64,000 bases of DNA from contig CM026425.1 of the NCBI GenBank assembly GCA_014871385.1, positions 7,541,243 to 7,605,242 on the forward strand. The letters run 5' to 3'. Both the position numbers and the translations under genes were made by a program. This DNA is from Ceratodon purpureus. Taxonomy: Eukaryota > Streptophyta > Bryopsida > Pseudoditrichales > Ditrichaceae. Positions within the stretch are counted from its first letter, which is position 1, and the number at the start of each line of letters is the position of its first letter. Below are positions 18,308 to 59,497 of this stretch, one piece after another. A model generated the notes under the pieces. It was not told where the DNA came from. It saw only the letters and a program-made list of their open reading frames with translations, and made no database searches.

Positions 18308-18962
18308 TTAACCCCCTAACGTCCACGACTATTTTTAGACTATTTTTGGGATTCTAGATAGGGTATAGTTGCAAGCGTCGTAGCTCAAATTTGGCAAGTT
18401 TTTTGAAAAATCTAACCGTATGGATGGATTTGTAGCATGGCAGTTAGTCTACATCCAAACTATGGTCCCATTCCGAATCAAACTCACAAACATTATAGCA
18501 CATCTGTCAAGAAAAAGCTGAAAATTGCTTCACTGAAAACAGCGTTTTTTCACACATTTTTTATGTTTTTTGTTTTCTTTTTCTTCTAAAAAGTTTGAGA
18601 AAAGCTGCGTTCTGGGAGCATCAGGGCATGAGAAATTTGTGGGAATTGAAAGTACTCCAATCCGCATATCCTAGCTAAAGATATTGATGTTCAAAGATGG
18701 ATCAAATCCCAAATTCCTTTGAGAAAATTTGCTAGGTCACAAGGAGCTTTTCTGGCTTTTCTCATACCCCCTGCCACTCAAATGACCATAACTTTTTACT
18801 CAAAACTCCAATTCTTGTGTTGTAAAGTGGATTGGATAGCTAACTTGAGCGCGGACAACTCTCTAGTTGGGCTCAGATTCTATTTCCTTGTAGAAAAGAA
18901 GTTATTCCCCAAAAACCAGCCACAGAAGCCCAATTCAGGCTCCATGGACGTTATGGGGTTAA
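18308..18962. mobile_element. piggyBac-like MITE, divergent subfamily
   Basis: The element is bounded by TTAA at both ends. The left end reads TTAACCCCCTAACGTCC and the right end is its near mirror, GGACGTTATGGGGTTAA. Such ends with a TTAA target duplication are the signature of piggyBac-type transposons. It carries a TAACCGTA motif near 18413, a weak version of the block shared by the other copies. It encodes no transposase. The longest frame (18719-19015) shows no homology I recognise and ends outside the element. Confidence 0.8.
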
Positions 18963-19169
18963 TGGTTTTATCTATTATTAAAGCAAATGGAAAGGTAAAC
19001 TGTAGTCTTTTTTAGGGTTGAAATGTTATTCTATCAGCATATGAAGCAAATGGAGAGAACATATGCTTCATTTGCATATGCTAATGGAAAAACACTCCAA
19101 TCCTCAAAAGAAGCATAGGGATTGCAGATGATAGAATATTTAATTATGAAAATTCATGATTCATTCAAT

Positions 19170-19330
19170 TAATATCAAAGCTATGCGGCAAAAGTGGATA
19201 GAACAAGCAACCTTCATATCTTCACTTTGACGCTTTTTCAAATGAGCTATTCCCACATTCATGTTTTTGCCGGAGTTTGAACCAAGGACCTTCAATGTGT
19301 TAGACAAATGTGACACTAGTTAAAAATAAA
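19170..19330 (-). mobile_element. tRNA-derived SINE relic
   Basis: On the minus strand GGTTCAAACTCC at 19272-19283 matches the pol III B box, and it is preceded by an anticodon-arm-like stretch. The A box near 19309-19320 is degenerate. An ATTT microsatellite lies just upstream of the head at about 19326-19339, and a body of about 90 bp follows the B box. The borders are approximate. Confidence 0.4.
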
Positions 19331-20080
19331 TAAATAAATCAACCCACAAAAAGACAAGTCCAGATCACCTACTGTCATGTCTCCGCCACATTTCAAACAA
19401 TATTAATTGACCTTGATGTGAGTGATCCAACCTTGACTCTGCTATGAGGGGTTAATAAATAATGTAAAACCCAATTTCACCACAAAAACACCAAGTCTCT
19501 TTATTTCTCCTTCACAAGCGTGGCTCGGATGTGTAATTAGGTTGCGATCATTTTTCTAATCCTCCCCATTTTGGTGGTTCCATGGTCTTTTTGGTTTTTT
19601 TTTGTTAATTTTGGGCTTGCACCAGGAAAGTATCCATAGGCGCCCCCCTAGAATCAAGTAGGGCCCCACTCAAACATAATAATAAGAAAACGGATTTGTT
19701 CCATCCGTCTTACCCTCTTCCAAGCTTGGCTTCTAAGCCATGCTTATTGAAGGATTTTAGACAATTCCATAAACACTTACTAAATGACTACTTTCTGGCT
19801 TGTTGGCTCTACAATCTTTTGGCTTGTTAGCTCTCTACTATCAAGAGTATTGGATTTTTGTCATATACTAAAAGCACCTGCTCATTTTTTCCATTACTAC
19901 CGGTCCTTTATCCCACTTACCCCAGAATTTTAGCACATAACCACCACTATTGCTTTCATCATCACCACTAATTTGAATTTGGTGGCTATTAATGTGTTCA
20001 TGGCAACCATAGGCATATCTTGTAGATGACACTCATAGAAAAGTGGTAGTTGTAGGTTGATTTGCCTTAAATGACCCAGG

Positions 20081-20340
20081 CCTAATTTGAACCTTCAATA
20101 GAAGATAAAGGTTTCAATAACTGAGCATAACCAACAATTTTGTGTTTTAAACCTTCTATTAGTAGTTCATAATGGCACCGTTTTTAACTCTTCATTGGCA
20201 ATTAATGGCCTAATTTGAACCTTCAGCAGAAAGTAAAGGTGTCAGTAACTGAGCAAGAATCAACAATTGTGTGTTTTAAACTTTCCATTGATAGTTCATA
20301 GTGGCACCATTTTCCGACTCTTCATTGACAGTGTTAATGG
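20081..20340. repeat. Tandem duplication of a 128 bp unit
   Basis: Two adjacent copies begin with CCTAATTTGAACCTTCA at 20081 and 20209. They stay alignable through the TGTGTTTTAAAC and TTCATAATGGCACC-type stretches and differ at scattered positions. No coding function is visible. Confidence 0.75.
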
Positions 20341-20776
20341 CTCTTCATTGGCTAGTTAATAGTTTCACTCATTCTTCTTATGGCTTGCTAGTGGCGGTTC
20401 TCATAAGCAATTATTGTTCGTCATTGAAACTTTAGATACTGGACTTTTGGATATTCACAAAAAAATCATCATAATTCCAAAAAGTTTGAATTTACTGGAT
20501 TCAAATTCTTGGTTGCCCAACCTATGTGTAATTTTATCACACCTCAAGTGCCATTCAACCAACAAAAGGGTATGATTTTGGAAACACAAATGTGAGATGT
20601 AGTTCCTACATGAAGAACCCTAAAGAGGCTCACGTAAAGCACTCATGCTTTCAATTCTATACATACAAACTTGATGTTGTTTGTTTAAACTATACATACT
20701 CAAGGGTCATACCTTTTTTTTTTGTTCCATATAAATATAAAAGAGTTGGAATCTGATTAATATTATTGTATTTAAT

Positions 20777-20858
20777 TAAGAGAAAACGAAACTTCGGTCT
20801 CCGAAGGGGACCGACATGAATTAAGTGTGTGTTTGATCTACCCCAATCCAATGTCTAA
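20777..20858 (-). mobile_element. Severely 5'-truncated LINE 3' end (hairpin family)
   Basis: Only the last 80 bp or so of the element remain. Its 3' hairpin (CGGTCTCC pairing with GGGGACCG, 20795-20813) is followed by the conserved GAATTAAGTG stretch seen in the copies at 30865, 41538 and 48353. An 8 bp TATTTAAT lies on both sides (20769-20776 and 20859-20866) and may be the target duplication, although it is low-complexity sequence. Confidence 0.65.
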
Positions 20859-21119
20859 TATTTAATAAAGTAACAAGATGCATTTGATAAAACTTAGGTG
20901 TATCATAGTGTATAACTTTCTTACCTCCAAGAAATTTATCTCAAAGAAAAGATGCAAAGTCTACTAATAATTAATTTTTCATAAGTTTGGAGGTTTTAGA
21001 AGATTTTAAGTTGTAAAGGCGTTGAATTATTTAGGAGTTATTACTAAAAATAACATAAAATCAAATGGCATACATTTGAGAAAGAACTTTTGGTAAAAAT
21101 ATCTAAATCATAGATAATC

Positions 21120-21634
21120 TTAACCCCTAAATCTCCTTCAATTCCTAAATGATCCAAACTATACCGAGGAGGCTTAGATGAAGTAGTAAAAGTAATAATT
21201 TGGTGAATATATGATTTTTTGGGGAATTTTTTAGTAAATAATTTGTTTTCTCTTGAAGTTTGAGCAATTAAAAAACCATTTATTTTTAAGATATTTATTG
21301 ACTTCTTGAAGATGTTGTAATGTATTCTTAATTAAATTTCTACTCAAACTACCAACTTATCCAAGTTGAAGTATAAATGAATTTTACAGAGGCAAGCTTT
21401 GAAGTTTGACAAAAAAAATAAAATCCTCATTTGTTGAAAACCAATTTTACCCCACTTTGATCTTTACAATCGCACAAATGAAAGAAAAAATCAACGGTCC
21501 AAAATTAGTACATGAGTAGATCTTATTGCTAAGTTAACTAAAAAAGATTGGATTGAAATTTGTCATGCCTCAAGTGTAAATTAGTCAATTTTGGCAATTT
21601 GGCCAATCTGTAACAAGGATCTTTGCTAGCTAAG
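21120..21634 (-). mobile_element. piggyBac-like MITE, short form
   Basis: It opens with TTAACCCCTAAATCTCC at 21120. The body aligns along its whole length with the copy at 51448-51999, including ACTCAAACTACCAACTTAT. It also aligns in reverse with the longer copies at 23972, 25592 and 37555, so it is an internally deleted or diverged member. The far end has decayed (GCTAAG in place of a terminal TTAA). Confidence 0.7.
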
Positions 21635-23901
21635 AGTAGTCTTGAAATAGAAAGTAGTAAAAAGACAAGTTATCTCTAAATACACAAAACTGAAGTATTA
21701 GATGGCAACTTCAATAGATAGAGTACTACATAATACACCATGCAAGGTCATTGAAAAAAAAACTTATCCAATAGTCTTTTGAAATGTTACATGCTGAAGA
21801 TAAGGTATTGTATAAAGCACAAGGGTAGATGCTTACATCATATATGCAATTTGTAGGCCCTAAAGTTTGGGTACTAGATTCACATTGACCTTAAAATGTG
21901 ATATAGGGGCTTAAATATGGATCCAAAATGCAGACATTCATCCTTTAACGTATATTGTATTAACTTTTCATATTTTGAAGATTTGTAATCAAATAATTCA
22001 ATAATTTTGGTATTTGAATTTTTAAATTGTCTATTTTTAGTAAATAATTATATTTGTGCAATTTATATAATCATAGATTTTTTTTAATTTGAAATTTTAT
22101 TCTAAAAAACTTTAGAATGGAATAGTTAAAGCAAGTATAATTACATCTTATATAATACCTAACCTTGGCGAAGGGTTCCTACACTCTTAGGGTATGTTTT
22201 CATGGGCCACTTACTTGACATTTAGACCATGGATTCACTATTAACAGAAATATGTGTCTTGACCCAATCCATTCTGTAATGAAGGTTACTTGTCAATAAA
22301 TAAAAATTCATTAAAAATAAATTCAATGTTATTGACTTGTGTACATAACTTTTACAATAAAGAACTCATTATTGCTACTTGATGCCATAGTTGATGTAAT
22401 GGTGCCATAGTATTATAAGATGATTGAATTTTGAAATGGTGAATAGTTTCAGTAAAGACGCCCATAGACAAACACTAAAGATGACAATACGGCACATATC
22501 ACTATGTTCTTCAATAATAATCCTTCATTCACATTCAAGTTGTAAAACATTCATATGATTTGAGAAAACCAAATGTACATCCAAGCACACATTCTTCAAA
22601 TCGCATGATCACGTGGGGAATAGCCGGCTACAATCATTTCCAACAGTAAACCCATGGTCCAAATGTTGGGTAGCAGGGTGGTCCATGGGAATACACTCAT
22701 GGGACGGTTTTCACACCTTCCAGGTATCTGTGGGAAAAACAAACAATTTAATTGTTAAAATTCTTTAAAAAACTGTCGTCTAGCTGACTGCTCTAGTACC
22801 CATCACTGTGTCACACATGAAACATGGCCAAAACAAGGGATGGCTCTGGAGCATTCTGCCAATGAGCTTTTTACTTCTGTACAATACATGGCGAAACAAA
22901 TCGGTATGGATGAGCAGTGGAACAGCTGTAATTCCGACAGAGAAGCACCGTTTTTGCTTACAAAAGCAGATAGTATCTAATGCGCAGGGGGAGGAGTTAT
23001 CTGGGTTTCTAGTTGAAAGAGGGAAGACCCACTTTGATTCTCTCGTCTAGAGTGGAGGCCCGAGGGAGAATGAATTTAGACTCCAGAATTGAACAAGGAG
23101 ACCACTTTGCAGAAGCCGGCTGCTCAAGCTTGTTTGTTCTTTTTTGTAAGGTACCATTTGGAGAATTGTGGTCCTTTCCTTTGATGGGTTTCAACGAAGA
23201 ATATTGCATGACCCAATGGTGCCCTTCATCATTGTAGACATGGTGCTTTTGGAGAAAGTCTTTGCATGCCAAAGCAATTCACCGAAAGTCTCTGAATCAA
23301 ATGTCCAAAGCTGACACCCAAATGAGGCTGACATGTCAAAATCTGGATAGAAGAGTGGCGAAGGCCATCCTCAAGTTCTCCTTTCTCTTCTCTCTTATTT
23401 CATTCCTTTTTTTCCCCTTTTGTTCTGTTTTCAATTTTTAATTTTTTTTGGAAAAAAATAAATCTTATTACTCCTGATTTTTTGGGATAATTACATATTA
23501 GTTTCTCATATTCTAGTTGTTACTAACAAGGTGCAATGAAAATACACTATTTAGAAGCCATGTATTTCTTAAGTAATTATTTATTGAATTGAAACTTTTC
23601 TTTCTTCTATATACTCAATTTTCATCCAAATTAAATAATTTCTTTGGAGTAAAACAAGGTTCTTTTTGAGTTGAAAGACCAATTTCATCCATACTTGATA
23701 AGGATTATAGCGGAAAAATTGCCAAACTCTTCTATGTTTATTAATTACTTAGAGTGGATAAATAAGATTATTTTAAACCAAAACTCATAGTATCTAAGTC
23801 AAATACCGGATGACTTTTGAAAAATAACTCAAGAGTTTAAAAAATACATTATAGTATGCATTGCAATTTGGGTGGGATCCAATAAACACTAATATGGTTT
23901 A
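21635..23901. other. AT-rich DNA around a GC-normal island
   Basis: About 22560-23390 has balanced composition and sits between AT-rich flanks. Open frames there are 74-87 codons and unrecognised. From about 23690 to 23880 a segment resembles 36200-36340 in the same orientation (both contain GTCAAATACCGGA). No host gene can be called. Confidence 0.35.
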
Positions 23902-23971
23902 TTAACCCCTCAAGGACAGTTTGCCCCATTTGAGCTTTTTCAGAATTTGGGCATGTACATGTGGATTCAAT

Positions 23972-24907
23972 TTAACCCCTAAGTGCCCAAGCATGTTTTG
24001 GGTCTCAAAACCTCCAAAACAGTGATTTTTTACCACCTTGTAGAAACGACAATTTGAACCAAACAAATTTGCTTTGTTTAGACATCTAGCCGTAAGATCT
24101 TGTACTAAACCTTATTTAAAAGTACAGTTAAAATTTTCAGGCGTTGGATGTTTACCATCTTAGAGATTATAATATTCAAAGTTGCAGCAAAACTTTTTTT
24201 GGGCATTGGCTAAATGACATAGTCAAAGTGGTGCAAAGGGGGCGTTGAAGATTTTTACCCCAAACATTTTGCCCATATTTTTTCCATGTAGGTAATCAAG
24301 TATATTACCTCAATGGAAAATTTGAGAGACTCATTCCTTTTTTTGGCTCTCATAAAAATTGTTTTCTAGAAGCAGGTCTAAAAACATTGATATAGTAAAA
24401 CATGCACGACGTCAGGTATATTTGTTTTTAGAAAAATCGGGACGGTGGTTAGGTGCCTTTATAAGTTTTTGATTTTTGAGCGAAATTAATTATGAAAAAC
24501 TCCAAAATCTCAAATTTTGACAAATTTTGAAAGAAGTAATTCACAAATTACCAAAAATATTGAAGCTTGTCTTTGTAATTTTTAGAGGCTGCCCTTGTAA
24601 AATTGGTATATTTTTTGACTTGGGTCTCTTTGGAATTTGAGTGGTCGTTTGGTTATGAACATATTTCAAGAATTATTTTTTAAAAAAAGCCTAATTTTAA
24701 GCTGCCCGTTTTGGACTTGAAACCTAAAATTTCTAGATGAAGGTCTTAAAATTGGAATTTGGCTTTGCAAATTTTACCACATACACTTTGCACTACATGG
24801 AGCATCTAGTAAAAATCTTAGGCAAAAATATTAATTTTAATCCCTTTATCTAGACTGACGGAAGCAGCAAAAAGCCATTTCGGCTTTCCTAGGCACTTAG
24901 GGGTTAA
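23972..24907 (+). mobile_element. piggyBac-like MITE, nested copy 1
   Basis: The ends are TTAACCCCTAAGTGCC and GGCACTTAGGGGTTAA, a good inverted pair with TTAA on both sides. CCGTAAGATCTT lies 118 bp inside the left end and ATATTCAAAGTTG about 75 bp further in. It aligns end to end with 25592-26531 and 37555-38490. It has no coding capacity. Confidence 0.88.
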
Positions 24908-25591
24908 GATAAATTTTTTGAAAACTTTTTGTGAATGTTTGCTGTAACAAGGACTTTAAGGAAATCTAATTTTTTCAATTCAAAAATTCAAAAAATAATT
25001 ATGGTCCAAAGCGGAATTTTGTGTACAGTGGGCAATTTGGCCACCCATGTTAAATACATCATTATCTTTGAGATTTTTCCTATAAATACTATATGTCATC
25101 ATCTTTGGGATTTCCAAAAAAAAACTTCTTTTTAGTACAAAATGTTCATTCCACAAAAGATCAAAGTTTTCTCACCATTTTGGGCAATGTACCAAAAAAC
25201 TTCTCATTTCCTTCAATAAAAGTTTAAAATTTCATTTTTTTATGTTTTTCATTTTTCACTTAAAGAATGAACATCAATCTTTAATTTCGCCATTTGGATA
25301 GGGACTTTGTGAAATAATGGAATTTTTGGGAAAGAAATATGAATTAGCATTCTTGTGTATTCAACTTAATAAAAAATATTTCTTTCAACATGCTATAATT
25401 GTCTTTTGTGCTTAAATTTTTCATACAATTAGCTAATTTAGTCGTCTTTGTGATGCTCTAAACAACCAAAATCCACAATGCAAAAAACCAAAGAAAAAAA
25501 AAGTTAGAGTGCGACGACCTAGTTAAAAACCGTGTCAAAAAAGTTTGTTTTCAAATTTCAATTGCTATAATCTTCTAATCTTTAAGATCCA

Positions 25592-26531
25592 TTAACCCCT
25601 AAAGGTCCAAGGTGTTTTGGCACTTCCAAAATTGAAAACTACAAATTTTGACCACCGTATGGAAATTGATGTATGTTTCCAATAAAATTTGCTTTTCTGG
25701 TATTTCCAACCGTAAGATCTTCAACCTAAATAATTGCAATAACACCATGCCAAATTTCAACTGTTGGATCTTTACCATTTGTGAGATTATAACGTTCAAA
25801 GTTTACTGTTTTTTTTTTTTTTTTGGCTTTCCTCGAAAGGCATAGTCCAAATGGTACCATGGGAGACTTGATGATTGTTACCCCAAACATTTTGCTCATA
25901 TTTTTTTCCATGCAGGTAACTAAGTTGGGCACCTCCATGCAAAATTTTGAAGACTTATTTTGAATTTTTGGCCTTCATGCAAATTATTTTCCAAAAGCAG
26001 GCACAAAATTGTCAATATGGTAAAACTTAAATAACAATAAATGTTTTTGGTTTGGAAAAAAAGTGAACGGTGAAAAGTTACATCTATGAGTTTGTAAATT
26101 TTGGAAGAAAAAAAATTGAAAAATTCCTAAATCTCAAATTTTGACAATTTTTGAAAGGAAAAATTGTAAAATTACATAAAACTTTGAAGCTTGTTCATGT
26201 AATTTTTGGAGGGTGCCCTTGCAAAATTGGTAAATGTTTTGGCTTGGGTCACTTTGGATTTTGAGTAGTGATTTGGTTATGAACATACTTTTAATTTATT
26301 TTTTTGAAAAAAACCTAATTTTAAACTGCCCGTTGTGGACTTGAAACCTAAAATTTCTAGTTGAAGGTTCTAAAATTGAAATTTGACTTTGAAAATTTTA
26401 CCACATACACCTTGCGGTAAAGGGAGCATCCATTAAAAATATTAGGAAAAAATATTACTTTTAACCTCTTCAACTAGGCTGCCCGAAATAGCAAAAATCC
26501 AAATCGGGTTTCCTGGACCTTTAGGGGTTAA
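25592..26531 (+). mobile_element. piggyBac-like MITE, nested copy 2
   Basis: The ends TTAACCCCTAAAGGTCC and GGACCTTTAGGGGTTAA are perfect mirrors over 17 bp. CCAACCGTAAGATCTT begins about 116 bp from the left end and AACGTTCAAAGTTT follows about 80 bp later. This copy best shows the consensus ends of the group and is probably among the younger ones. Confidence 0.92.
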
Positions 26532-26741
26532 AATGAAAATTTTTGAGCTCTTTACTAAATAATCTTGTTGAAGATCTTATAGTTAGATTTAGAAAATAAT
26601 GAATTTTTAGTCATTCATGTTTTTTACATTGGAAATGGCAGTTTAAGAGCGTTTTTCACTGAAACATAGTCCAGGAACCATAGGGGTTAATAATAAAGGT
26701 GCATATCCTTGAATGGATGGAAATAGTTTAGGATACCTTAA

Positions 26742-27060
26742 GGTATGAACACCTTAAGGCAGGCGCCCCCTCAAAAGCGAACATGGAAGATTCTTACTAA
26801 AATGAAGATTTGATCACCCTATAATTACCCTTAATGTACATGATGCGTACATTTAGTAGGGTGTCCAATTATAGTTTAACCTATATTGGTCACTTCGAAA
26901 ATTTGTAAATATTATGTAACTTGTAAGTGCTTAAAAATATTGATAATATAGGGAAACTTCGTCTTTTCTTCTTTCTAATCACTGAAAAATAGTGAAGCAC
27001 TCATTCCACCACTCCAAGCATAGTAAATTCCTTAAATGGATGAAAATAGGTGTTTGTACC
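26742..27060 (+). mobile_element. Short TIR MITE, copy 1 of a pair
   Basis: The ends are GGTATGAACACC and GGTGTTTGTACC, an imperfect inverted pair. The 319 bp interior aligns with the reverse complement of 58271-58582, sharing GGCGCCCCC, GATTTGATCACCCTATAATTA and TTGGTCACTT-type stretches. The superfamily is not clear; TTA flanks both sides here, which would suit a Harbinger-type element, but the second copy does not confirm this. Confidence 0.65.
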
Positions 27061-28780: not shown

Positions 28781-29874
28781 TCTAAGAGCATCCCAAATGC
28801 AAACTCCTCAAATTCACCCGCTAATAGGCCTTGGCGAGGTCTTTGCATGGTAGCGGGGTTTGTTGGGAAGTCTGCCCCCCAATGGACATCCTCTATGGGA
28901 TCTCCGATTCAAAATTTGGTGCTTGCGTGGCATTCTGTGGATCGGCCACATTGGCCGACTTTAATCCCTAAAGGACAATTGTCCTAGAATGGGCGTTTTT
29001 GAAACTTGGGCATGTACCTACAGTTGCAATTTTGATTGTGATTTTATGAAAATTTTATTGAAGATAGACCATAACAAGAGCTACGTGTGGATCTTTTTTT
29101 TTTTTTTCAATTCCGACATCGGGATCAAAAGTTATGAAGGTTTAAGTGTCAAACCCTGCTCGTTGGGCAGCTGCTGAAATTTTCTAAGCCACTGTGAATG
29201 CAGCAAATTCTGCCCAAAATTGCGAAAATCTGCGAAAATCTGCCCAAAGATGAAACTTTGAAATTCCACCAAAAATTGAGATTTTGATATTTTTCAAAAA
29301 TAAAAATAAAATTATTTATAGAGAAGGCAGTAGAGCATGTTCCCACCGTTCGGATTTTCAATCCAAGAATTTTTCATATGCTATTTTATTGTCAAAAAAC
29401 GGCCTTTGTATGTGAATTTCAGCATACCCCCTTGCGGAAAATGATTTATTTGGAAACCTTCCACAACTTTTTTGAATATGATATTTTTGGGACATGTACC
29501 TAACTCACTTAGGAACAATAATATGTAGAGACTCATTCCATATCTACTTTAAAAAATGGTTTTTTGGGCCTTCAAAACTCTGCTGTCCCCTTTTTTCACA
29601 GGGAAAAAAAACTTGTTTTTCTACTTTGAACCTTATGATCTTGCAATTGGTGAGGAACGAGTGTGTGAGATTTGGTGGAGTTAACATTGACTTGCTTTGG
29701 CATTTGGAAATTATCTCACAGTATATCAAGAAAATTTGATGTGAGCGGGCCATTTTTGGCATGGCCTGCTAGGTTGGCGGGATAGATAGAGTGCCATTGG
29801 AGGCATGTTTTGTTGAACAACGCTAATGCCCGTTGGCGGGTGTCATTAGTGTCTCCATTGGGGATGCTCTTAGA
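28781..29874. mobile_element. TIR MITE (TCTAAGAGCATCCC ends) split by a piggyBac-like MITE
   Basis: The outer element begins TCTAAGAGCATCCC at 28781 and ends with the mirror of TCTAAGAGCATCCCC at 29874. The inverted repeat is alignable for about 60 bp (both arms contain CACCCGC). A TA on each side would fit a mariner-type target, but this is not certain. The piggyBac-like copy at 28961 sits inside it and must be younger. Confidence 0.7.
28961..29684 (+). mobile_element. piggyBac-like MITE, right end missing
   Basis: It starts TTAATCCCTAAAGGACAA at 28961 and aligns in reverse with 38946-39813, including the repeated GGCAGATTTTCGCAGA-like motif. The similarity stops at about 29680, where roughly 130 bp of the usual right end are absent, although a TTAA happens to stand at 29681. 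A deletion after insertion is the simplest reading. Confidence 0.75.
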
Positions 29875-35229: not shown

Positions 35230-35961
35230 TTAACCCCTAAAGTAGAAAGGTTTCAAAACAACTTAAAACCCTCAAAATTAGACTCTTTTAATACGAGGTG
35301 TAAGTCTTTAAGTTTTGATGTATTTTGAAGGGAAGTAACCGTAGGATCTAGTACTTGGATTTCAAGTGTTCCATGAACCAAAAAAACCAATTTCAAAAGC
35401 AAATTTGATGTGAGGCTCTTCAAATTCTTGTACCCATGTGGCTTAGGATTATGTCCTTGCACTTTTTCCCCTCATACGACCTATAAAACCTGTAGAAATG
35501 TTTGTCTTTCACATGGAGCTATTCTGGAATTCAAATACAAATGCCGGTCTATGATAGTAGAAAAGGCATGTGAAGAAATTTTGGATTGGAAATCCAAGCG
35601 GTGAGATCATGCCTTAAAATATCATCTACATGCTCCAAAAAAAAAACTTGAAAAAAGTAAAAATCTCAATTTTTGGTGAATTTTTGAAGTTTCCCCAATC
35701 TAATTAATTTTGGGCAGATTTTGAGCATACACCGCAGTTTTGGGCAGATTTCAGAATGTTCTAATAGTGTTTTCAAACTTCGACTACGGATATCTCCTAA
35801 TGTACGAGGAATTTTGAAGCATGAATGGTCTTGTTAGAAAATATGAAAATTTCCCATGTTGTGCCAAAGTTAGAGCCACATCCGGTAAAATTTGACTCAT
35901 AGGGAGTCTGACTGGACCCCAAAGCATACCATTTTTGTTGAGTTGATGCTTTAGGGGTTAA
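35230..35961 (+). mobile_element. piggyBac-like MITE
   Basis: The ends are TTAACCCCTAAAGTAG and GATGCTTTAGGGGTTAA. A variant of the shared block (TAACCGTAGGATCT) lies about 108 bp inside. Near 35660-35750 it carries CTCAATTTTTGGTGAATTT and GGGCAGATTT repeats like those at 39480-39560, which places it with the 38946 copy. Confidence 0.82.
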
Positions 35962-37554: not shown

Positions 37555-38490
37555 TTAACCCCTAAAGGTTCAAGCCGTTTTTGGACCTCCAAAACCAAAA
37601 ATTGTGATTTTTGACAACCTGGTAGAAGTTGAAGTATGATTCTTAATTTTTATTTTTTTGATACATCCAACCGTAAGATCTTAAACCTAACTACTCGCAC
37701 TAATACCATGTAAAATTTCAACGGTTGGATCTTTACAATTTGTGAGATTATAACGTTCAAAGTTTACTGTTTTTTTTTTTTGGGCTTTACGCGAAAGGCA
37801 TACTCTAAATGGTGCCAAGGGAGACTTGATTGTTGTTACCTCAAACATTTTGCTCATATTTTTTTCCACGTAGGTAACTAGGTTGAACACCTCCATGCAA
37901 AATTTTAGAGTCTCACTACACTTTTTTGGCCTTCATGCAAATTATTTTCCACAAGAAGGTACAAAAACCACAATATGGTAAAACTTAAATGACGTGAAAT
38001 GCTTTTGGTTTTTTAAAAAGTGACAGTTAAAAGTTACGTCCATGAGTTTATGAATTTTTCAGAAAAAAAAAAATATAAAAAATTCCTAAATCTCAAATTT
38101 TGACAAATTTTGAAAGAAAAAATTGTAAAATTACCAAAAACTGTGAAGGTTGTTTCTGTGATTTTTGGAGGTTGCCTTTGTAAAATTGGTACGCTTTTTG
38201 ACTTAGGCCACTTTGGATTAATGAGTAGTGAATTGGTTATGAAGACATTTCGTAAAAAATATTCTTAAAAAATCTAATTTTAAACTGCCCGTTTCGGACT
38301 TGAAACCTAAAATTTCTACATGAAGGTTCTAAAAGTGAAATTTGGCTTCGAAAATTTTACCACATACACTTTGCCGTATAAGGAGCATCCAGTAAAATTT
38401 TTAGGCAAAAATATTACTTTTAACCCCTTCATCTAGGCTGCCCGAAACAGCCGAGAGCCTTTTTGGATTTCTAGAACCTTTAAGGGTTAA
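37555..38490 (+). mobile_element. piggyBac-like MITE
   Basis: The left end is TTAACCCCTAAAGGTTC and the right end is GAACCTTTAAGGGTTAA. It aligns along its length with 25592-26531: CCAACCGTAAGATCTT at about 37667 and AACGTTCAAAGTTT near 37752, then CTGCCCGTTTCGGACTTG. It encodes nothing. Confidence 0.9.
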
Positions 38491-38945: not shown

Positions 38946-39813
38946 TTAACCCCTAAAGTTCTAAGGGTATTTTTCATCAAAACTGCCTGAAAACAGCCCC
39001 CCTTCAAAGCAAGGTGAATTTTGAAAAGTTGGGGTCTTAACTAGTACATCCAACAGTAAGATCTTGTAGCTAACTTCTATGTCTATATGTCCACCAAATC
39101 TTACACACTCATTCCTCACCAATTGCAAGATCATAACATTCAAAGTTGAAAAACAAGTTTTTTTTCCCTCCACAAAAAGGGAACAACAGAGTTCTGAAGG
39201 CCCAAAAAACCATTTATAACATCATGGATTTTGGGGGTTTTGATGCACGTCAAAGAAGACTAAGTTAGCTAATTATTTTAAGAAAATCACATTCAAAAAA
39301 GTTGTGTAAGGTTGCCAAAAAGTTCATTTTCTGCTAGGGGGTATACTGAAATTCACAAACAAAGGCCGTTTTTTGACAATAAAAATAGCATATGAAAAAA
39401 AATTGGATTAAAAATCCAAACGGTGGAAACATGCTCTACTGCCTTCTTTATACATAGAAATTTTTATTTTTGAAAAATATCAAAATCTCAATTTTTGGTG
39501 GAATTTCAAAGGTTTGTCTTCGGGCAGATTTTCGCAGATTTTCGCAATTTTGGGCAGTTTTGGGCAGAATTTGCTGCATTCACAGTGGCTTAGAAAATTT
39601 CAGCAGCTGCCCAACGAGCAGCGTTTGACACTTAAACCTTCATAACTTTTGATCCCGATGTCGGAATTGAAAAATAAAAATACCAACACGAAGATCTCCG
39701 AACGGCTCACCTTCAATAAAAATTTCAGAAAATCCCGATGTAAATTGAAGTCACAGGTACATGCCCAAACTCTAAAAAAGCCCAAATGTGGCAGATTGTC
39801 CTTTAGGGGTTAA
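38946..39813 (+). mobile_element. piggyBac-like MITE
   Basis: The ends are TTAACCCCTAAAGTTCT and GTCCTTTAGGGGTTAA. CCAACAGTAAGATCTT lies about 105 bp inside the left end and AACATTCAAAGTTG about 80 bp later. The right third holds iterated GGGCAGATTTTCGC motifs (39520-39565). It is the closest relative of 28961-29684, which lies in the opposite orientation. Confidence 0.9.
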
Positions 39814-42354: not shown

Positions 42355-43194
42355 TTAACCCCTAAAGGACGAAGGAGTATTTCCACAGTTTTTCAGTACC
42401 TACAGTGCCATTCTTGCATTTTCCAAAGGGAGACAAATTTGACAAATTTTGGGTTTGGAGAAGCATTGGATTGGAAGATAATAACATTTGAAGTTTGGAA
42501 AATTGGTGAATTTCTGAAATATTATGAGTGAGTTTCCAAGTTTGATTGAAAATTGCTAATTCAAAAATTTATAAAAACTTAGCAACTAAAGCTAATTCTC
42601 TTCTCTAGTATGTTAAGTACATGCACATTTTTTAAAGATTTTTCGGAGTTACCAATTTGGAGAAAATGGGTTTGGAATAAGTGTCACTATGAATTTTATT
42701 TTTTTCAACATTGCACTTTTTGGAAAATTCAAAAGGTTTTCTGATAAATCCAAAACGGTGAAGCCATAAAAGAGTGGTCATACAAGCATTCCCCCCCAAA
42801 AAAAATGCTGAAAAAAAATCCACAAGGAGAGATCTTTATTTTTCAGTTTTCAATGTGCTCAAATTTTGGTTGAAACAATGACACTGTAGAAACACTAACT
42901 TCACTGTAGAAATACTAACTTCACTGTAGAAACACTAACTTCACTGTAGAAACACTAACTTCACTATAGAAACACTAACTTCACTGTAGAAACACCTCAC
43001 CGACCCATGTTGTTTCTTTTTTCTAAATTCAGGGTTTTAATTTTTCACTAAAATTTCAGCGTATCCTTATTGAAAACTTGATTCTAAAGAGGTTAGGAAC
43101 AAAAAACACTCAAATTGACCCTTCTAGGGCGTTTTACTAGGTTTTCTATTTCTGACACAACCCAAAAGTGGTTGCTTTGTCCTTTAGGGGTTAA
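42355..43194. mobile_element. piggyBac-like MITE containing a 20 bp tandem array
   Basis: The ends are TTAACCCCTAAAGGACG and TTGTCCTTTAGGGGTTAA, a strong inverted pair with TTAA on both sides. GATAATAACATTTGAAGTTTGG near 42476 corresponds to the shared AACGTTCAAAGTT block, but the body is otherwise its own subfamily. It holds a tandem array at 42882-42996. Confidence 0.88.
42882..42996. repeat. Tandem array of a 20 bp unit, about 5.8 copies
   Basis: The unit CACTGTAGAAACACTAACTT repeats with only single-base differences (one A-to-T, one G-to-A) before fading out. The array lies inside the piggyBac-like MITE at 42355-43194. Its near uniformity suggests recent expansion. Confidence 0.93.
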
Positions 43195-43197: not shown

Positions 43198-43237
<40 letters not shown>

Positions 43238-45941: not shown

Positions 45942-46439
45942 TTAAGAGACCTTTTCACTTCTAAAATTTCTTATAGTTTTTTTTGCCAAAACTGTCAAAA
46001 TTCATTCCTTACCACTTTAGTTCTAATAAAATCTCAATCTAAGCATAGTCTTAAAATTAACTTGATATACTACTCATGCATAAAAATTGAACCAATAATT
46101 GTTCTTCATTTAGAAGATTGTATTGTATACTATAATTTGGATCAATTGAAACTTTGGATAGAAATTTGATTAAGAATTAATTACTAAAAATATAAAAAAA
46201 TCTTGAAAATAAATTTTTTGAGCCGCCCCAATTGAGCCTTGAAACTAAAAAGTTTCACAATTTCTAAACTATCTATTTTGTTATTTTGGTAAAAATTGGT
46301 TTCCCAACACAAAACTCTTTGAATTCTTTACTTAAATTAGTAAACAATTTGAAAATGGAAAAATAAAGATTGACACTTCATCTAGAGTGACCAAAACCTC
46401 CAAAATCCAAATTGAATTTTAAAGAACTTTGAGTATTAA
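45942..46439 (+). mobile_element. piggyBac-like MITE, diverged short form
   Basis: It is delimited by TTAAGAGACCTTTTC and a right end reading CTTTGAGTATTAA. The interior aligns with the reverse complement of 51448-51999 (for example GCCAAAACTGTCAAAATT and TTCTAATAAAATCTCAAT). Near 46380 it has the TTCATCTAG motif that precedes the right end of the longer copies. The ends are eroded, so it is an older copy. Confidence 0.62.
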
Positions 46440-50780: not shown

Positions 50781-51194
50781 CTTGCATAATTATTGGTGCT
50801 CCTGTCTTATATATTAAAGCTTCAAATTAAGATTTAGTTTAAACTAATTTAACGTGCAATTTTGAAAATCATCATAAATAATGTTTTTTTTTCCATAATA
50901 GTTAGAGTTTTAATTTTAGCTTAGATATAAATTGGAAAAATAATAAATTGTCACAATCTTCTTGTGGTTTGAATTATTTTTTATGTTAAATTTATAATAA
51001 ACAACATTTTTCTTCTCAAAATATTTTTAAATTATCTACATGTTTGTTATAGAACTTTGAATGTAGATTTCCATGGTGTTGAATAAATTCTTAAGAGACT
51101 TTTTGTATTCAAGTTCTAGAAAACTCTTCATACATAGACATATCAACATACACTGATATAAAAGGTATAAATATATATATAAATATATATATAA

Positions 51195-51238
<44 letters not shown>

Positions 51239-51447
51239 TTATATATTTATGTAAAGCTAGTACAAAATTATCCAAAAAGTTAATTTCAATTAAATCATAT
51301 CTTCATTTGCTCTAGTCAATTTGAAAAACCAATATCCAACATTATAATTCTAGAATATTTTTTTGACACTAAATTAAAGGTTCCAATATTTCAAATTGTA
51401 ATATATAAATCACAAGGTTGAACATCTTTGCTATTGTCCGTGCAACA
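50781..51447. repeat. AT-rich DNA with a near-palindromic TA tract
   Basis: At about 51165-51251, ATAAATATATATATAAATAT-type units on the left face TTATATATTTATATATTT on the right around a TA core. The tract is almost self-complementary and could extrude a cruciform. The rest is AT-rich and featureless. Confidence 0.7.
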
Positions 51448-51999
51448 TTAATCTCCTAAATTTGTTCAATCCCTACTTAGTCTAAATGATATTGAACAAG
51501 CTTAGATGAAGTAGTAAAAAGTAATATTTTGATGTGAAAGTTTGGGTACAGCAAGATTTTATTGCAACCTAACTATGTAGTGTTTAAGATGAATTTGTGT
51601 TTTTTTCTTCAAATTTAGGTAACTAAAATTCTTTTTATTTCTAAGATATCTTTGGGATATTTTGCAATGTATTCTTAACCAAATTCATACTCAAACTACC
51701 AACTTATCTAAGTTGTAGTATACATGAGTTTTATAAGGGCAAGCTTCAGAGTTTGACAAATAAACATTCTGCAGTAACTATTGAAAAACTGTTTCAATCC
51801 ACTTTGGTTTTTATGATCTTACAAATAAGAAAAATCAATGGTCCAATTTTTATATATGAGTTGTATATCAAATTAATTAGAAGATTTTATGGCTAGATCT
51901 TCCGAAAAATGTTTACATTGCGATTTATTAGAATTGAAGTAGAAAAGTGTCAATTTTGGCAAGTGTGGCTAATTTGCAATAAGGATCTTTAGGATTTAA
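51448..51999 (-). mobile_element. piggyBac-like MITE, short form
   Basis: It begins TTAATCTCCTAAATTTG and ends GGATCTTTAGGATTTAA, an inverted pair with TTAA at both ends. The body aligns with 21120-21634 throughout, sharing GCTTAGATGAAGTAGTAAAA and CTCAAACTACCAACTTATC, and with the longer copies in reverse. Confidence 0.8.
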
Positions 52000-54430: not shown

Positions 54431-56222
54431 GTCCAACAATGTTGCCATCATGAATTATTAATGGGAGGTCTAAAACACACCGTTATCAGTCCCACACATT
54501 CATTGGCACCTCTACCTCAGGCTCAACAATTAGTAGATACTACTACTGTACTGCTCCACCTTCTCTACCATACAACCTCCTCCCAACCCATCACCCCAAA
54601 CAAACAAACACCCGGACCCTCCCACACCCGCCAAACGACGCGATCACCTGCACCCCTAACACCCGGACCCTGCCACCTCGACACCCGCCCCAAACACCCG
54701 GAACCCTTCCACACCCGCCCGCACCTCCCATACCCGCCCGGCCAGCGAGACACCCGCCAGGATCGCACCCGCTCAGAGACACCCGGACCCCGCTCACACC
54801 CGTTCGGTCGGCCAGCGAGACATCCACCCACCCGTCCGTCCGGGCACACCACTTTCTTCCCAGAGAGCCTAGGCTGAGCCTGGCCTGCCTGCCTGCCTGC
54901 CTGTGCCTGCCGTGTCCCCACGGAGTGCACTCCTTCCCTTCCCTTCCCTTCCCTTCCCTTCCCTTGCTTGCCTTGCCAACCTCGCCCCTCCGCTCCACCC
55001 CTCTCCTTTTCTTCCTCCCTCACCCGGCCTCGCGCCGGACCACCTTCACTCTCCCCACACGCCTCCAGCGCATCTCCCCCTCCCCCGCACAACACCATCT
55101 CACATCACACCGCATCGCCATCAACATCTCTCTCTTTGGAATCCGGGGTGGCGCAAGGCGAGGGGTGGAGCAGGAGAGCGGACGAGGTTGCAGGGACGAG
55201 GTTGCTGCAGGGCCATTTGTTGCGCGCTGGGCATGGCTGGCGGGGCGGGCACGATCGTCGCGCGGCGCTGAGCCGGGGTGAGACAGGGGTGAGCCTGTCT
55301 AACCAACCAACCAACCAACCGTCTGTCTTGATCTGCGTGCGTGCGGGGTTGAATTGATGGGGTTTGTTGGGGGGCGGTTTGATGGTGTGTGTGTGTTTGG
55401 GGTGGGGGGTGTTTGCTTGTTTGTTGTGGTGATTGGTGAAGGTGTTTGTTGCGTCTTTGTCGGGTGTGGTGGTGTTGGGTGGGTGTGGTGGGAGAGGGTT
55501 TCGGTGTTTGTTGTGGGTTGTGGTGGTGTTTGTCGATCGGGCGTCGTGGTGGGTGTCTGTTGCGGTCACGGGTTTTGAGGGTCGTTTGGAGTTTGGGGAG
55601 GTGAGCGTTGGCGAGCGAGGTTGATTTGGTGGGGTGAGGATGATATGTGTTCGTTCTTTGAGTGAGGAATGTTAATTTGGAATGGTTTTGGTTTGCTTTG
55701 GTGGGTTGGGTGATTGTGGAGGCTTTTTGGCGTTTTGATGTTGGGACGGGAGGGTAGGCGAGGGGCGGTAGGGGATGAGCGAAGAATGGGAGTGTTTTGA
55801 GGGTTGTCGGGAACAGAGGAGGGAAATTAGGGCTAGCGTTGGGTTGATGGTTGTTGATGATCGATGTTGATGGGGCTTTGGGAGGGGAAATTCCGTTTGG
55901 GTGATGAGTTATCAGTTCTTGTTGACGGTGGGTCTGCCTGATGGTGACTCGTTTTTTCGGTGGGTGATTATGTATGTAATGTTTGCAGTATGTGATGTCT
56001 GTGAAGGTCGGGGGATCTGGTCTTGGGTTGATTGATTGTTGCGCGAAGTTCTACTCTTGGTCTTTTCGTTTTGCGATGTCTGACTTCCCCATTTGCTGTT
56101 GAATCGGTGTGCGCCTGATTTACTATGAGAGGAGAGATGTAAGGCGATAAATTAGGGTTGGGATATGATGTGAGACGTGCCGACGTGTCTTTTCTGGTCT
56201 GACGTTGGTTTGGTTTTCGCAG
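54430..56222 (+). promoter_or_regulatory. GC-rich promoter and leader region of the A20/AN1 gene
   Basis: Composition changes sharply at about 54430. 54606-54850 is a degenerate minisatellite built on ACACCCGGACCC and GGCCAGCGAGACA units. GCCT repeats follow at about 54882-54903, CCCTT repeats at 54931-54965 and CCAA repeats at 55301-55320. CT-rich tracts like these commonly lie around plant transcription starts. From about 55340 the strand becomes G/T-rich as expected of an intron, ending in a GGTTTTCGCAG acceptor at 56222. The donor and transcription start are not fixed. Confidence 0.5.
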
Positions 56223-56372
56223 GAAAGGGCGTCTTCGGAAGAGTGAGCTGGAAACTTGGATCTGGTGGAAACCGGGATTCTACTTCTACTTGAGAGATTG
56301 TGCCGCGGCAGAATTGATCATATACTCTTCACTTGCTGTGCGGCATCCTAAGCTTGCCAGGAAGCGCTAACC

Positions 56373-56477
56373 GTGAGTTGATTTGGACAGTTTGAGGAGG
56401 GTACATCTCCATTTGGGTTGACGGGTTTGTATCTATAATATCGATTTTATAGTGTAACATTTCTTGGGTTTACATAG
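56373..56477 (+). other. Probable 5'-UTR intron just before the start codon
   Basis: GTGAGTTG at 56373 is a good donor and TTTACATAG at 56469-56477 a good acceptor, two bases before the ATG. Together with the upstream acceptor at 56222 this implies a leader exon at 56223-56372. Leader introns with an intronless coding exon are usual for this gene family. Confidence 0.55.
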
Positions 56478-56479
56478 CC

Positions 56480-57028
56480 ATGGCTCAGTACAGTCGAAAG
56501 CAGGACACTGAGGAGACGAACTGCCAGTCTCCAGAAGGGCCCGTGAGATGCACCAATAATTGTGGTTTTTTTGGAAGTGCTGTTACTCTGGGGATGTGTT
56601 CGAAGTGCTACAGGGACTTTGTATTGACTCAGGCGAAGGCATCATCTGCTAAAACTGCGGAGAAAGCTGCGCTGGTCTCTACATCTGAAGAAAATTTTGG
56701 TCCAGAAAGGGCACAGGAGGAGAGCTCACATTTGACACCCAATCTCTCAATTGGGCAGCCTGAATCTGGAGGTGCATCGTCTGGGGCATCATCCGGGGCA
56801 TCATCAGGGTCAGGTCAGGATCCCTCTCGGCCGAAGCCCAACCGATGCTTCTCTTGCAAGAAACGAGTGGGCCTGACAGGGTTTGAGTGTCGATGTGGCA
56901 ATCTATTTTGTTCTGCACATCGGTACACCGACAAACATAGTTGCCCTTTCGACTATAAGGCGGCCGGTCAGGATGCAATTGCAAAGGCCAACCCAGTGGT
57001 GAAAGCTGATAAGATGAATAAGATCTGA
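56480..57028 (+). CDS. A20/AN1 zinc-finger stress-associated protein (SAP)
   Basis: The 182-residue protein has the standard plant SAP layout. An A20 finger has C24, C28, C40 and C43 in the CTNNCGFFGS...MCSKCYRDF context. A low-complexity Ser/Gly linker (three GASS-type repeats, about residues 95-112) follows. A C-terminal AN1 finger has C123, C126, C137, C139, C144, H147, H153 and C155, followed by the typical DYKAAGQDAIAKANPVVKADK tail region. In plants this family binds ubiquitin or acts in stress signalling, with varied reports of E3 ligase activity; the role of this member is inferred from architecture. The coding exon has no intron, as in most relatives. The ATG lies in a CCATGG context. 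All zinc ligands are present, so it looks functional. Confidence 0.95.
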   Translation: MAQYSRKQDTEETNCQSPEGPVRCTNNCGFFGSAVTLGMCSKCYRDFVLTQAKASSAKTAEKAALVSTSEENFGPERAQEESSHLTPNLSIGQPESGGASSGASSGASSGSGQDPSRPKPNRCFSCKKRVGLTGFECRCGNLFCSAHRYTDKHSCPFDYKAAGQDAIAKANPVVKADKMNKI

Positions 57029-57560
57029 GCTTCAGAGCGGTCAGATTGGGACAATGGTGTAAGTTTAACAAGGTCAACTTCCCGTCGAACTGTAGTAGAG
57101 TAGGATTTGGTTTTCGTGGAGGGACAGTGGAGATCTGCAACCTCGAGTATCTCTGACCTGGCTCCGAACAGTAGCAGGAAGTGCAGGTTATGATGTCTAC
57201 GTACGCATAAGGTAGAATTTTGGTGACTGCGTGTACAACACGAGCGAATGGCAAGCTCTTGTGTCTCTTCTTTTGACTGGGCTACTATTTTGGCCTTGGG
57301 GCGTCTGGTTTCTTAATTGTGTCACCCGTGCAGCTGTTTTGTTGCTTGGGGATGCGACGTCGAGCAATGTATCCTGCTACATTGTGGCATCATCATATGG
57401 ATGCTCATGTTGTATATATGCAGTAAAAATGACGTTGCAAACTTTGTAACTATGCTGCCGCCTTCGTTTTGTGCACTTAAAAAAAATTCTTGCATGTGGG
57501 GATGCTTCATTTCGAAGATTCCCGTAAAATAAAAGATGTCCTTTGCCCATCCTCGATTCA
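57029..57560 (+). other. 3' UTR of the SAP gene with poly(A) signal
   Basis: T-rich, non-coding sequence follows the stop codon. AATAAA at 57528-57533, about 500 bp after the stop, is a candidate poly(A) signal. The actual cleavage site is unknown. Confidence 0.5.
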
Positions 57561-58270
57561 GTTCTTATTATCAGGGACGTCTGAGTTTACTTCCTCATTA
57601 GAGCTTGGTTGGTTTGATGATTGTGCCTTCGTGCTCACCATGAGAGTATCTAATCTTCCTGTTATTAGCGATCGACGCTGTTGAGAGATACTTCTATATC
57701 TGTTGGGGAAGCTCCTTTGTCTGTCCAAGAATCTTTTGAGCAAGAGGTTTAGAATTGGACTTGGATGTACTCCGGAACGCTGAGCATTCCAACTTGCAGC
57801 ACCTAAGCGTGTCTCCGAGTGTCACTAAATCTTCAGCAGTTGTGTCCACGCCCAAACACTCTGGATTACACCTGGACAACTTCTTAATCTGTCGCAACTG
57901 TGTCCAAGCTTCGAGGTTTTCCATCATGGCTGAGTAATGTGTAATAATCGTGACAAGACCTAGAACTGACCGCCTAACCAACAAACGCATAATTCCGTCA
58001 TTGGAGACTTGAACTTCATTCTCACTAACCGTCTTATTATCGAAAACGTCCCTTCACGTCATGCTTGTCAATTTGATGGTCCACACTATGTCGACGTAAA
58101 CTAGCGTTGTAATTTATCACCGGTGCTAACTAGCTGACGATGCAGTGGCAGGTGTAGTGGCCACTGGACATGCTATCGATCATCTTTTGCACTGTCAGCA
58201 AAGAAGCAAGCGCCAACAAACGATCATGTGCTGCACAGCGACGACATCACTCGTTTCATTTGATACCCAT
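57561..58270. other. Intergenic DNA, no gene recognised
   Basis: Frames of up to 98 codons (57694-57990, minus) show no motif. Composition is balanced and no repeat was matched. Confidence 0.4.
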
Positions 58271-58582
58271 GGTAGCAGCACCTATTTTCGGACACTTAAG
58301 GAATTCACTATACTTGAGGAGGTGGAATGAGTGGCTTCCTATTTTACAATGATTAACAATAAGGAAAAACAAAGTTTCCCCATTTTTGGGATATTTATAA
58401 GCACTTACAATAATAACTACAAATTTTGGAAGTGACCAACATAGGTTGACCTATAGCCGGACACCCTTTTGCATGTACGCACGGGATACATTATAGGTAA
58501 TTATAGGGTCATCAAATCTCCACTGCAGCAAGAATCTAGGGTGTACGCCTTTATGAGGGGGGCGCCTTTAGGTGCTTACACC
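58271..58582 (-). mobile_element. Short TIR MITE, copy 2 of a pair
   Basis: The ends GGTAGCAGCACC and GGTGCTTACACC are imperfect mirrors. The reverse complement aligns with 26742-27060 across the whole length. It shares GATTTGATGACCCTATAATTA and a GGTCACTTCCAAAATTTGTA-like stretch. It has no coding capacity. Confidence 0.65.
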
Positions 58583-58728
58583 ATACAATGTGCCTCCATT
58601 TCCATCTGGACCACCAAGCTTCAGTCACGAATCATGCGAAGCTACTAGCTGTAGCACGGTCATTATAGGGAAGTTGTGACGTTGAGAGGTAGTGTAACTC
58701 GGATTCCATAATCATCAGCATTATTGCT

Positions 58729-59497
58729 TTAAACCCTAAACGCCTAAACGACCAAAAACTGGTCGTTTTCATTTTTCCAAGTTCCAAAACTGTCATCCAA
58801 ATGACAATTTTTCCTCTATTTTTTTTTTTTTTTTTACGTGGTAAAGTTGAGAGAGATCTGTCTAACCTCATTAAAAAATTCTCAAAATAATAATTTCATG
58901 AATTTTGGTGCCTCCTTAAAGTCAAAAAGATCAATACCGTGTGTGTATTCAAAAATTCCTTGATACACACAGCTGAAACACAATTTTGACTATCCGGATG
59001 ATATTTTTTGCAGTTGAGGTAAACTAATGAAATGTAGTTTGGAAAATCTATTTTCCAGTCCAATTTAAAATTTTGAAAAATACTTAAAACTGAGTGATTT
59101 ATAGCTGGTATAAGATGAAGGGGTATAACCGTGGCTACTTCTTGATTTTCTACGGTTTTAGGTTTTTTCATCATATTTTTGATTTAAAACATAATTTTTA
59201 AGCACAGTAACTAATATAAGGTGTTTGGTTGTCATATTCATCTATGGTAAATATTTCATAATTTTTTAGTATAACCTATATTTGATATGAATTTTCTTTG
59301 TTTGTTTTGATTTGAAAATTTATATTAATTACATTTTAAAACATTTAATTTTGATAAAATTATTTCTTGTAGATAACATGTATATCTAGCTAAGAAAAGT
59401 TTAAAATTCATATTTTACATTATTTATAGTAGTAGAATAGAGCATCCAAAGTCAAAGTCTATTTCCGTGGTCATAGGCTCAGGCATTTGGGGGTTAC
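58729..59497. mobile_element. Eroded piggyBac-like MITE
   Basis: The left end TTAAACCCTAAACGCCT and the right end AGGCATTTGGGGGTTAC resemble each other in mirror image, with the last TTAA changed to TTAC. It has the usual size and AT-rich interior, but the shared GTAAGATCTT block is not evident. Call it tentative. Confidence 0.5.

What the first reader, a model, noticed from the sequence alone, without database searches (positions are those of the whole stretch)
18308..59497. A dense colony of piggyBac-like MITEs in a plant genome
At least twelve elements in 41 kb share TTAA plus CCCCTAAAGG-like inverted ends (18308, 21120, 23902, 23972, 25592, 28961, 35230, 37555, 38946, 42355, 45942, 51448, with a possible 58729). 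TTAA target duplication is the mark of the piggyBac superfamily, which is seldom described in land plants. The group includes near-perfect and heavily eroded copies, so activity spanned a long time.
Basis: partly seen in the sequence, partly recalled or inferred. Interest (0 to 1): 0.85.

Follow-up and report, generated by a model that had tools for sequence, protein, structure and literature searches.

The report
piggyBac transposon offspring in a moss
This stretch of what is probably a moss chromosome is littered with short, gene-less offspring of piggyBac, a jumping gene known mainly from animals, and the same genome still carries many copies with an unbroken-looking transposase gene, so a transposon superfamily rarely reported in land plants appears to have been busy there.

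Summary
The window lies in a 362-Mb genome that fits the moss Ceratodon purpureus. The end TTAACCCCTAAAGG occurs 2843 times exactly (reversed control 2). Of the 13 listed positions, 11 carry the end within 3 mismatches and 9 have a matching opposite end. Corrections: 23902 and 26690 are the ends of one element with two others nested in it. 28961 is truncated. 58729 is no MITE but the left end of a 7.2-kb element with a broken piggyBac transposase, not mentioned in the finding; its right end, 65961, is outside the window. 21120, 45942 and 51448 are decayed copies of an older family, not proven piggyBac. The superfamily was tested directly. Three MITE families match, at cognate ends over up to 400 bp, transposase-bearing piggyBac elements of the same genome (PF13843; 116 loci scored; four Asp kept in 30 of 30 aligned). 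A 99%-identical empty site shows one TTAA where the filled site has two. Two parent copies are about 99% identical over most of the compared stretches, with different flanks, so activity reaches recent times. This is a new member of a known kind. The surprise is the host, copy number and number of lineages, not the mechanism.

The parts
18308..18962 (-). 655-bp MITE (family 18308), an internal-deletion derivative of a 4.6-kb piggyBac element
   Evidence: TTAA at both ends; bases 1-388 are 79% identical to the 3' end and 448-655 83% identical to the 5' end of the C9 element L033+L061; 40 scored of 55 candidates in the genome, 24 of the 40 spanning bases 1-655, itself included
23902..26690 (+). 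Old B-family MITE interrupted by two nested A elements
   Evidence: ends 23902 '>' and 26690 '<'; with the two A elements left out, 921 bp align end to end with five other B copies, strongly diverged
23972..24907 (-). A-family MITE (936 bp with both TTAA) nested in the B element
   Evidence: both ends; joined flanks match uninterrupted B-type sequence in three held loci across the junction; ends match the L053 piggyBac element, 68% over 364 bp and 70% over 210 bp
25592..26531 (-). A-family MITE (940 bp), exact ends, nested in the same B element
   Evidence: 78.8% over 401 bp and 79% over 72 bp to the two ends of the L053 element
28961..29679 (+). B-family MITE, truncated at its 3' side
   Evidence: 80.9% identical to the 39813-39090 copy; 79% over 181 bp to the 5' end of the transposase-bearing element C1:1059846-1065182; no partner end
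35230..35961 (-). 732-bp MITE, distant B relative
   Evidence: both ends with 1 mismatch each; inner 240 bp 67% identical to the B copy at 28961; no anchored match to a parent
37555..38490 (-). A-family MITE (936 bp)
   Evidence: 40 copies scored of 2403 candidates; the 39 others are 88-94% identical; 78% over 395 bp to the 3' end of the L053 element
38946..39813 (-). B-family MITE (868 bp)
   Evidence: nearest other copy 98% identical; 80% over 209 bp to the 5' end of the transposase-linked element L064, 73% over 198 bp to that of the C1 element; 3' end only 30 bp
42355..43194 (-). 840-bp MITE with exact ends, possibly of the B lineage
   Evidence: ends; 34 bp at 88% to the L064 5' end; further copies in L003 and L005
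21120..21625 (.). Decayed copy of an older family F (about 0.5 kb); right end approximate, without TTAA; piggyBac origin not proven
   Evidence: 67% to 51455-51990 over 551 columns; alignment; no TTAA at 21560-21700
45942..46439 (.). Decayed family-F copy in reverse orientation; TTAA at 45942 and at 46436-46439
51448..51999 (.). Decayed family-F copy, TTAA at both ends, weak inverted ends
58729..64000 (-). Left part of a 7233-bp piggyBac element (58729-65961; right end outside the window, read in L029)
   Evidence: inverted ends 93% over 45 bp and 80% over 102 bp, TTAA on both sides
61051..63140 (-). Broken piggyBac transposase in three reading-frame pieces (one in-frame stop, one frame change); catalytic motif residues visible by eye in the pieces; Cys-rich tail
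   Evidence: PF13843 E 2.8e-41, 2.9e-19 and 9.2e-08; frames read; the three pieces searched apart against the moss set

Best explanation
The elements are non-autonomous internal-deletion derivatives (MITEs) of several piggyBac transposon lineages resident in a moss genome, together with one full-length but broken piggyBac element. Shown: three MITE families keep terminal stretches of a specific transposase-bearing piggyBac lineage (both ends clearly for 18308 and A, the 5' end for B) and have lost or replaced the inside; insertion duplicates TTAA; transposases of many lineages keep the catalytic residues. Inferred: those transposases bind the shared end sequences in trans, cut the MITEs out at TTAA and reinsert them at other TTAA sites. 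The window is a dense patch because insertions piled up there, two of them inside an older MITE.
For: End motif 2843 against 2 in the control. PF13843 transposase within TTAA-bounded inverted ends in the window itself. End-anchored homology of MITE families 18308, A and B with transposase-bearing elements, each MITE end falling on one and the same parent end (3' or 5') in consistent order. Empty site: L069 has 99% identical flanks and one TTAA, the filled site in L022 has two. A-in-B nesting. 920 of 1033 ends preceded by TTAA. 116 transposase loci scored of 998 candidates; four Asp conserved in 30 of the 30 best-scoring, 25 of these 30 without a stop in the domain; T. ni piggyBac 6x67 E 7.5e-27, piggyBat 9c0f E 1.6e-24. 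Near-identical parent copies in different 5' flanks.
Against: No orthologous empty site of a window element from another accession could be tested. The empty site belongs to an element (L022) with the same ends but an unassigned inside. Of 38 joined-flank queries against held loci, only one gave junction-spanning matches. C35 (35230) has no anchored match to a piggyBac element, D42 (42355) 34 bp, F at most 27 bp (E 4.7e-4). An unanchored search also shows short cross-lineage similarities, e.g. A with the L050 element and B with the L053 element, so pairing below the family level is not exclusive. The end starts CCCCT, not the CCYT quoted for the superfamily. Trans-mobilisation is not shown by sequence.
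Confidence: 0.93

Rival explanations
1. PIF/Harbinger MITEs (TWA duplication; recalled), common plant MITEs, with an apparent TTAA.
For: The genome has many DDE_Tnp_4 loci (150 scored of 596 candidates), so Harbinger-type transposases are abundant.
Against: Ends match PF13843 elements over up to 400 bp. The empty site has exactly one TTAA against two, which a 3-bp TWA duplication would give only with asymmetric ends, whereas the ends are symmetric CCCC/GGGG.
Confidence: 0.02
2. Another TTAA superfamily (Kolobok or Sola3; recalled, not from a call) supplied the ends.
For: Those also duplicate TTAA (recalled).
Against: The transposase-bearing elements with these ends encode piggyBac transposases; one of them was compared with solved structures and matches T. 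ni piggyBac and piggyBat. Kolobok and Sola families were not searched for.
Confidence: 0.02
3. The window cluster is a recent local expansion (local hopping or segmental duplication) rather than independent insertions.
For: Density is above the maximum of the sampled tiles.
Against: The window's A copies are only 74-82% identical to each other and closer to copies elsewhere in the genome; the nearest B39 copy is about 0.9 Mb away at 98%; several different families are mixed.
Confidence: 0.05

Closest known systems
piggyBac (Trichoplusia ni; PDB 6x67) and piggyBat (9c0f)
   Same: DDE_Tnp_1_7 catalytic domain with the Asp positions aligned, TTAA duplication, C-rich inverted ends, Cys-rich C-terminal tail by eye
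   Different: The six elements bounded at both ends here are 4.6-7.2 kb, and the 16 open frames printed (stop to stop) run from 506 to 1038 codons, most with a long low-complexity N-terminal part; beetle elements are 2.1-3.5 kb with 500-725 aa (PMC12732532, passages); overall identity is low
piggyBac-derived MITEs of animals (e.g. coral MITEs, PMC2872659, search listing only)
   Same: Short, gene-less, TTAA-flanked derivatives with piggyBac-like ends (recalled; the listing shows only that piggyBac and TTAA are frequent words in that paper)
   Different: Land-plant host; three families tied here to distinct parent lineages by shared end sequence
PiggyBac entries in plant repeat tables (Ceratopteris, PMC6890710, passage: 1230 copies, 122,417 bp)
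   Same: Reported presence of the superfamily label in a land plant
   Different: There a low-coverage repeat-annotation label; here transposases, ends and an empty site are shown

Membership tests
piggyBac superfamily | PF13843 transposase with DDD(D) residues | tested here: met
   116 loci scored above cut-off; the 30 best-scoring, aligned, keep all four Asp; window relic has PF13843 in three pieces. Which Asp are catalytic is recalled; their alignment with 6x67 is seen
piggyBac superfamily | TTAA target-site duplication, single TTAA in the empty site | tested here: met
   L022 against L069; nested A in B; 920 of 1033 ends. One clean paralogous empty site; no second accession
piggyBac superfamily | Inverted ends of 12-19 bp beginning CCYT (PMC10175614, passage) | tested here: inconclusive
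   Ends are inverted, e.g. 18 of 18 identical bases including TTAA in the L053 element, but begin CCCCT, CCCCCT or ACCCT, i.e. CCCT is shifted by a base or more; beetle elements also vary, e.g. CACGTT
piggyBac superfamily | Cysteine-rich C-terminal domain | tested here: met
   Cys/His-rich tails visible by eye in ORFs and in the window piece at 61051-61593; not scored by a model, apart from a weak, insignificant stretch aligned to the piggyBat tail
piggyBac superfamily | Seamless excision and reintegration by the transposase | not testable with these tools
   needs an assay
MITE of a named parent | Both ends homologous to a transposase-bearing parent, inside lost | tested here: met
   family 18308: both ends; A: both ends for 2 of 3 window copies (for 37555 only one end anchored); B: 5' end over about 200 bp, 3' end only 30 bp and only for 38946
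MITE of a named parent | Same test for D42 (42355), C35 (35230) and F (21120, 51448; 45942 not put in) | tested here: inconclusive
   D42 34 bp; C35 no anchored hit; F 27 bp for 21120, none for 51448
PIF/Harbinger | TWA duplication (recalled) | tested here: not met
   duplication is TTAA

The most novel reading that the evidence does not exclude
piggyBac is a major, many-lineage and recently active transposon superfamily of a land plant. A moss keeps at least seven transposase groups with less than 50% identity between groups, many with open frames, several feeding MITE families of their own and possibly mobilising each other's MITEs; the long N-terminal extensions would be a plant-specific variant.
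Probability: 0.6. Interest if true: 0.65.

Novelty: new member of a known kind. Interest (0 to 1): 0.5.

Why it matters
A recent paper calls piggyBac occasional in plant genomes and little studied there (PMC12732532, introduction passage). A moss with over a hundred transposase loci, several lineages and thousands of element ends would extend the host range of a widely used genetic tool, supply natural plant-resident transposases to test, and offer a system in which parent and MITE pairs can be matched end for end.

Tried and rejected
Ideas dropped. (1) L021 (4665 bp) and L023 (7012 bp) looked like long elements between two exact ends; they are composites of separate elements, with no stop-to-stop frame of 150 codons or more. 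(2) I asked whether the ends belonged to PIF/Harbinger; rejected, without comparing Harbinger ends. (3) I recalled 'Bryco' as a possible name for moss DNA transposons and searched it (10 of 83 listed); the listing gave mostly unrelated papers and an LTR-retrotransposon classification (PMC6317226, listing only), so it was dropped. (4) A scan of viral contigs for transposase relatives found none by tblastn (71 stretches matched a pattern). (5) Motif regexes for the catalytic Asp misfired on L031-L033, L038 and L060; replaced by alignment columns. (6) The Ceratodon genome paper and a piggyBac evolution paper, looked up by recalled DOI, are not held, so their content is unknown here. (7) Of 38 joined-flank queries against held loci only one, 23972-24907, gave matches spanning the junction.
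Full report
Observation. All 13 listed positions start with TTAA. The window holds 6 exact, 12 at-most-one-mismatch and 16 at-most-two-mismatch copies of TTAA+CCCCTAAAGG on the two strands, against means of 0.03, 0.07 and 0.43 in 30 first-order Markov random sequences. In the whole genome (362.5 Mb, 151 contigs) the 14-mer occurs 2843 times and its reversed control twice. So the end motif is real and genome-wide. The window is a dense patch: 6 exact ends against a mean of 0.50 per 64 kb; the densest of 175 tiles on the first 11.2 Mb of contig C1 has 5.

Anatomy. Pairing the ends gives eight MITE-sized elements with both ends (655, 936, 940, 732, 936, 868 and 840 bp, plus the interrupted one), a truncated one at 28961, three decayed copies, and one 7.2-kb element. 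Two main families appear: A (about 935 bp: 23972, 25592, 37555) and B (about 868 bp: 38946, 28961, and the host at 23902). The element starting at 23902 ends at 26690 and carries two A elements; with these left out, 921 bp align end to end with five other B copies, though strongly diverged from them. 21120, 45942 and 51448 belong to a third, older family of about 0.5 kb (21120 and 51448 67% alike). Two of the three have TTAA at both ends, 21120 has none on the right. Their inverted ends are weak and their superfamily is open.

The transposase. At 61051-63140 on the minus strand three reading-frame pieces match PF13843, the piggyBac transposase domain (E 2.8e-41, 2.9e-19, 9.2e-08). They are interrupted by one in-frame stop and one change of frame, so this copy is broken. 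The candidate 58729 is the left end of this element: its right end lies at 65961, 1961 bases beyond the window, with inverted ends 93% identical over 45 bp and TTAA on both sides.

Parents in the same genome. A family search found 116 scored PF13843 loci out of 998 candidates, all above the curated cut-off. The 14 named control genomes gave none, but the one of them that a later call names is a bacterium, so they say little about plants. The 30 best-scoring loci were fetched: 25 have no stop in the domain, they fall into 7 single-linkage groups at 50% amino-acid identity, and all 30 keep the four aspartates that align with those of T. ni piggyBac. One 841-codon ORF matches T. ni piggyBac (6x67, E 7.5e-27) and piggyBat (9c0f, E 1.6e-24), the only two distinct PDB sequences below 0.001.

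Linking MITEs to parents. The 655-bp element at 18308 matches the two ends of a 4605-bp element on C9 with an open frame of 506 codons (79% over 388 bp, 83% over 208 bp). A elements match the two ends of a 6503-bp element on C3 with an 841-codon ORF and 18 identical terminal bases including TTAA (for the 25592 copy 79% over 401 bp and 79% over 72 bp). B elements match the 5' end of a 5337-bp element on C1 with a frame of about 1020 codons and of a second transposase-linked copy, L064 (70-80% over 181-212 bp), but at the 3' end only 30 bp, and that for one of two copies. One search compared ten window elements (not the 23902 host or the 45942 copy) with the ends of seven fetched elements (L064 by its 5' end only), counting only matches that start within 6 bases of both ends, one per pair: hits at E 1e-3 or better fell on the lineages just named, plus 34 bp of D42 on L064 and 27 bp of the 21120 copy on the L050 element; C35 and the 51448 copy had none. 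Without the anchoring, short cross-lineage similarities also appear, e.g. A with L050 (69% over 117 bp) and B with L053, as expected if the lineages share ancestry.

Target duplication. The element in L022 (2268 bp with both TTAA) sits between flanks that are continuous, 99% identical over 200 bp on each side, in L069 on another contig; there a single TTAA stands where L022 has TTAA-element-TTAA. A third locus (L070, 74%) shows the same four-base spacing between the flank matches, but its bases there were not printed. The joined flanks of the A element at 23972 match B-type sequence across the junction in three held loci (L023, L064, L004), which carry TTAA-like bases once at that point in the copies printed. 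Of 1033 ends of the form CCCCTAAAGGNNCNNG, 920 follow TTAA; the reversed control of the shorter pattern occurs 20 times.

Age. Copies range from decayed (family F) to fresh: the nearest relative of the B copy at 38946 is 98% identical (40 scored of 3652 candidates), the 39 other scored copies of A (37555) are 88-94%, the 39 others of the 18308 family 71-95%. Two A-lineage parents (L053, L058) are 99.0-99.5% identical over four long stretches (418, 351, 1909 and 3200 columns) and 97% over 222, with some unmatched sequence between them; their 5' flanks differ (the 3' end of the second was not reached). No absolute dates are given.

Host. The assembly has a 110.5-Mb contig C6, 30% of 362.5 Mb. 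A review states that Ceratodon purpureus has U and V chromosomes each over 100 Mb, about 30% of a 360-Mb genome (PMC8000587, passages). The match is strong but indirect; no tool named the organism. The window also holds an A20/AN1 zinc-finger ORF.

What is known. A beetle paper calls piggyBac widespread in animals, fungi and protists and occasional in plants (PMC12732532, passages); one fern repeat table lists a PiggyBac label (PMC6890710, passage); a plant TE review names PiggyBac among superfamilies (PMC10794571, passage). Searches for piggyBac with moss (20 of 225 listed), land plants (1 of 1), Ceratodon (1 of 1; the hits in it are 'piggybacking'), superfamily/plants/algae (5 of 6), bryophyte (3 of 3), Physcomitrella/Sphagnum/Marchantia (15 of 329), MITE/plant genomes (15 of 65) and mosses/DNA transposons (0) listed no paper that, by title and start of abstract, describes piggyBac elements in a moss. 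The library holds open licences only and the Ceratodon genome paper is not in it, so prior annotation cannot be excluded.

Verdict. Ordinary piggyBac biology in an unexpected host: a new member of a known kind, with an unusually clear set of parent-MITE pairs.

Noticed in passing
genome contig C6 (110.5 Mb, probable sex chromosome): piggyBac loci look under-represented there: 19 of 116 scored PF13843 loci, 2 of 40 best copies of A (37555), 2 of the 40 best of B (38946) and 7 of 40 of the 18308 family, against about 30% of the genome length, while 47 of 150 DDE_Tnp_4 (Harbinger) loci lie there (counted by hand from the listings, which hold only best-scoring candidates).
   Followed up: partly
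G000:C1:3770667-3772591 and C1:3807584-3809508 (L013, L014): The same insertion with mirror-image flanks (12 bases printed on each side) about 36 kb apart, which suggests an inverted duplication of this stretch.
   Followed up: no
L022 (G000:C1:7835800-7839100): The element is inserted in a stretch whose flanks read as LTR-retrotransposon polyprotein on the minus strand (judged by eye).
   Followed up: no
L019 (G000:C1:6241803-6243841): An A element followed within 73 bp by a second copy of its own right end.
   Followed up: no
window 56453-57028 (+): A20/AN1 zinc-finger protein, stop-to-stop frame of 191 codons.
   Followed up: no
window 51161-51258 and 43200-43237: AT-rich simple repeats; the second lies just beside the right end of the 42355 element.
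   Followed up: no
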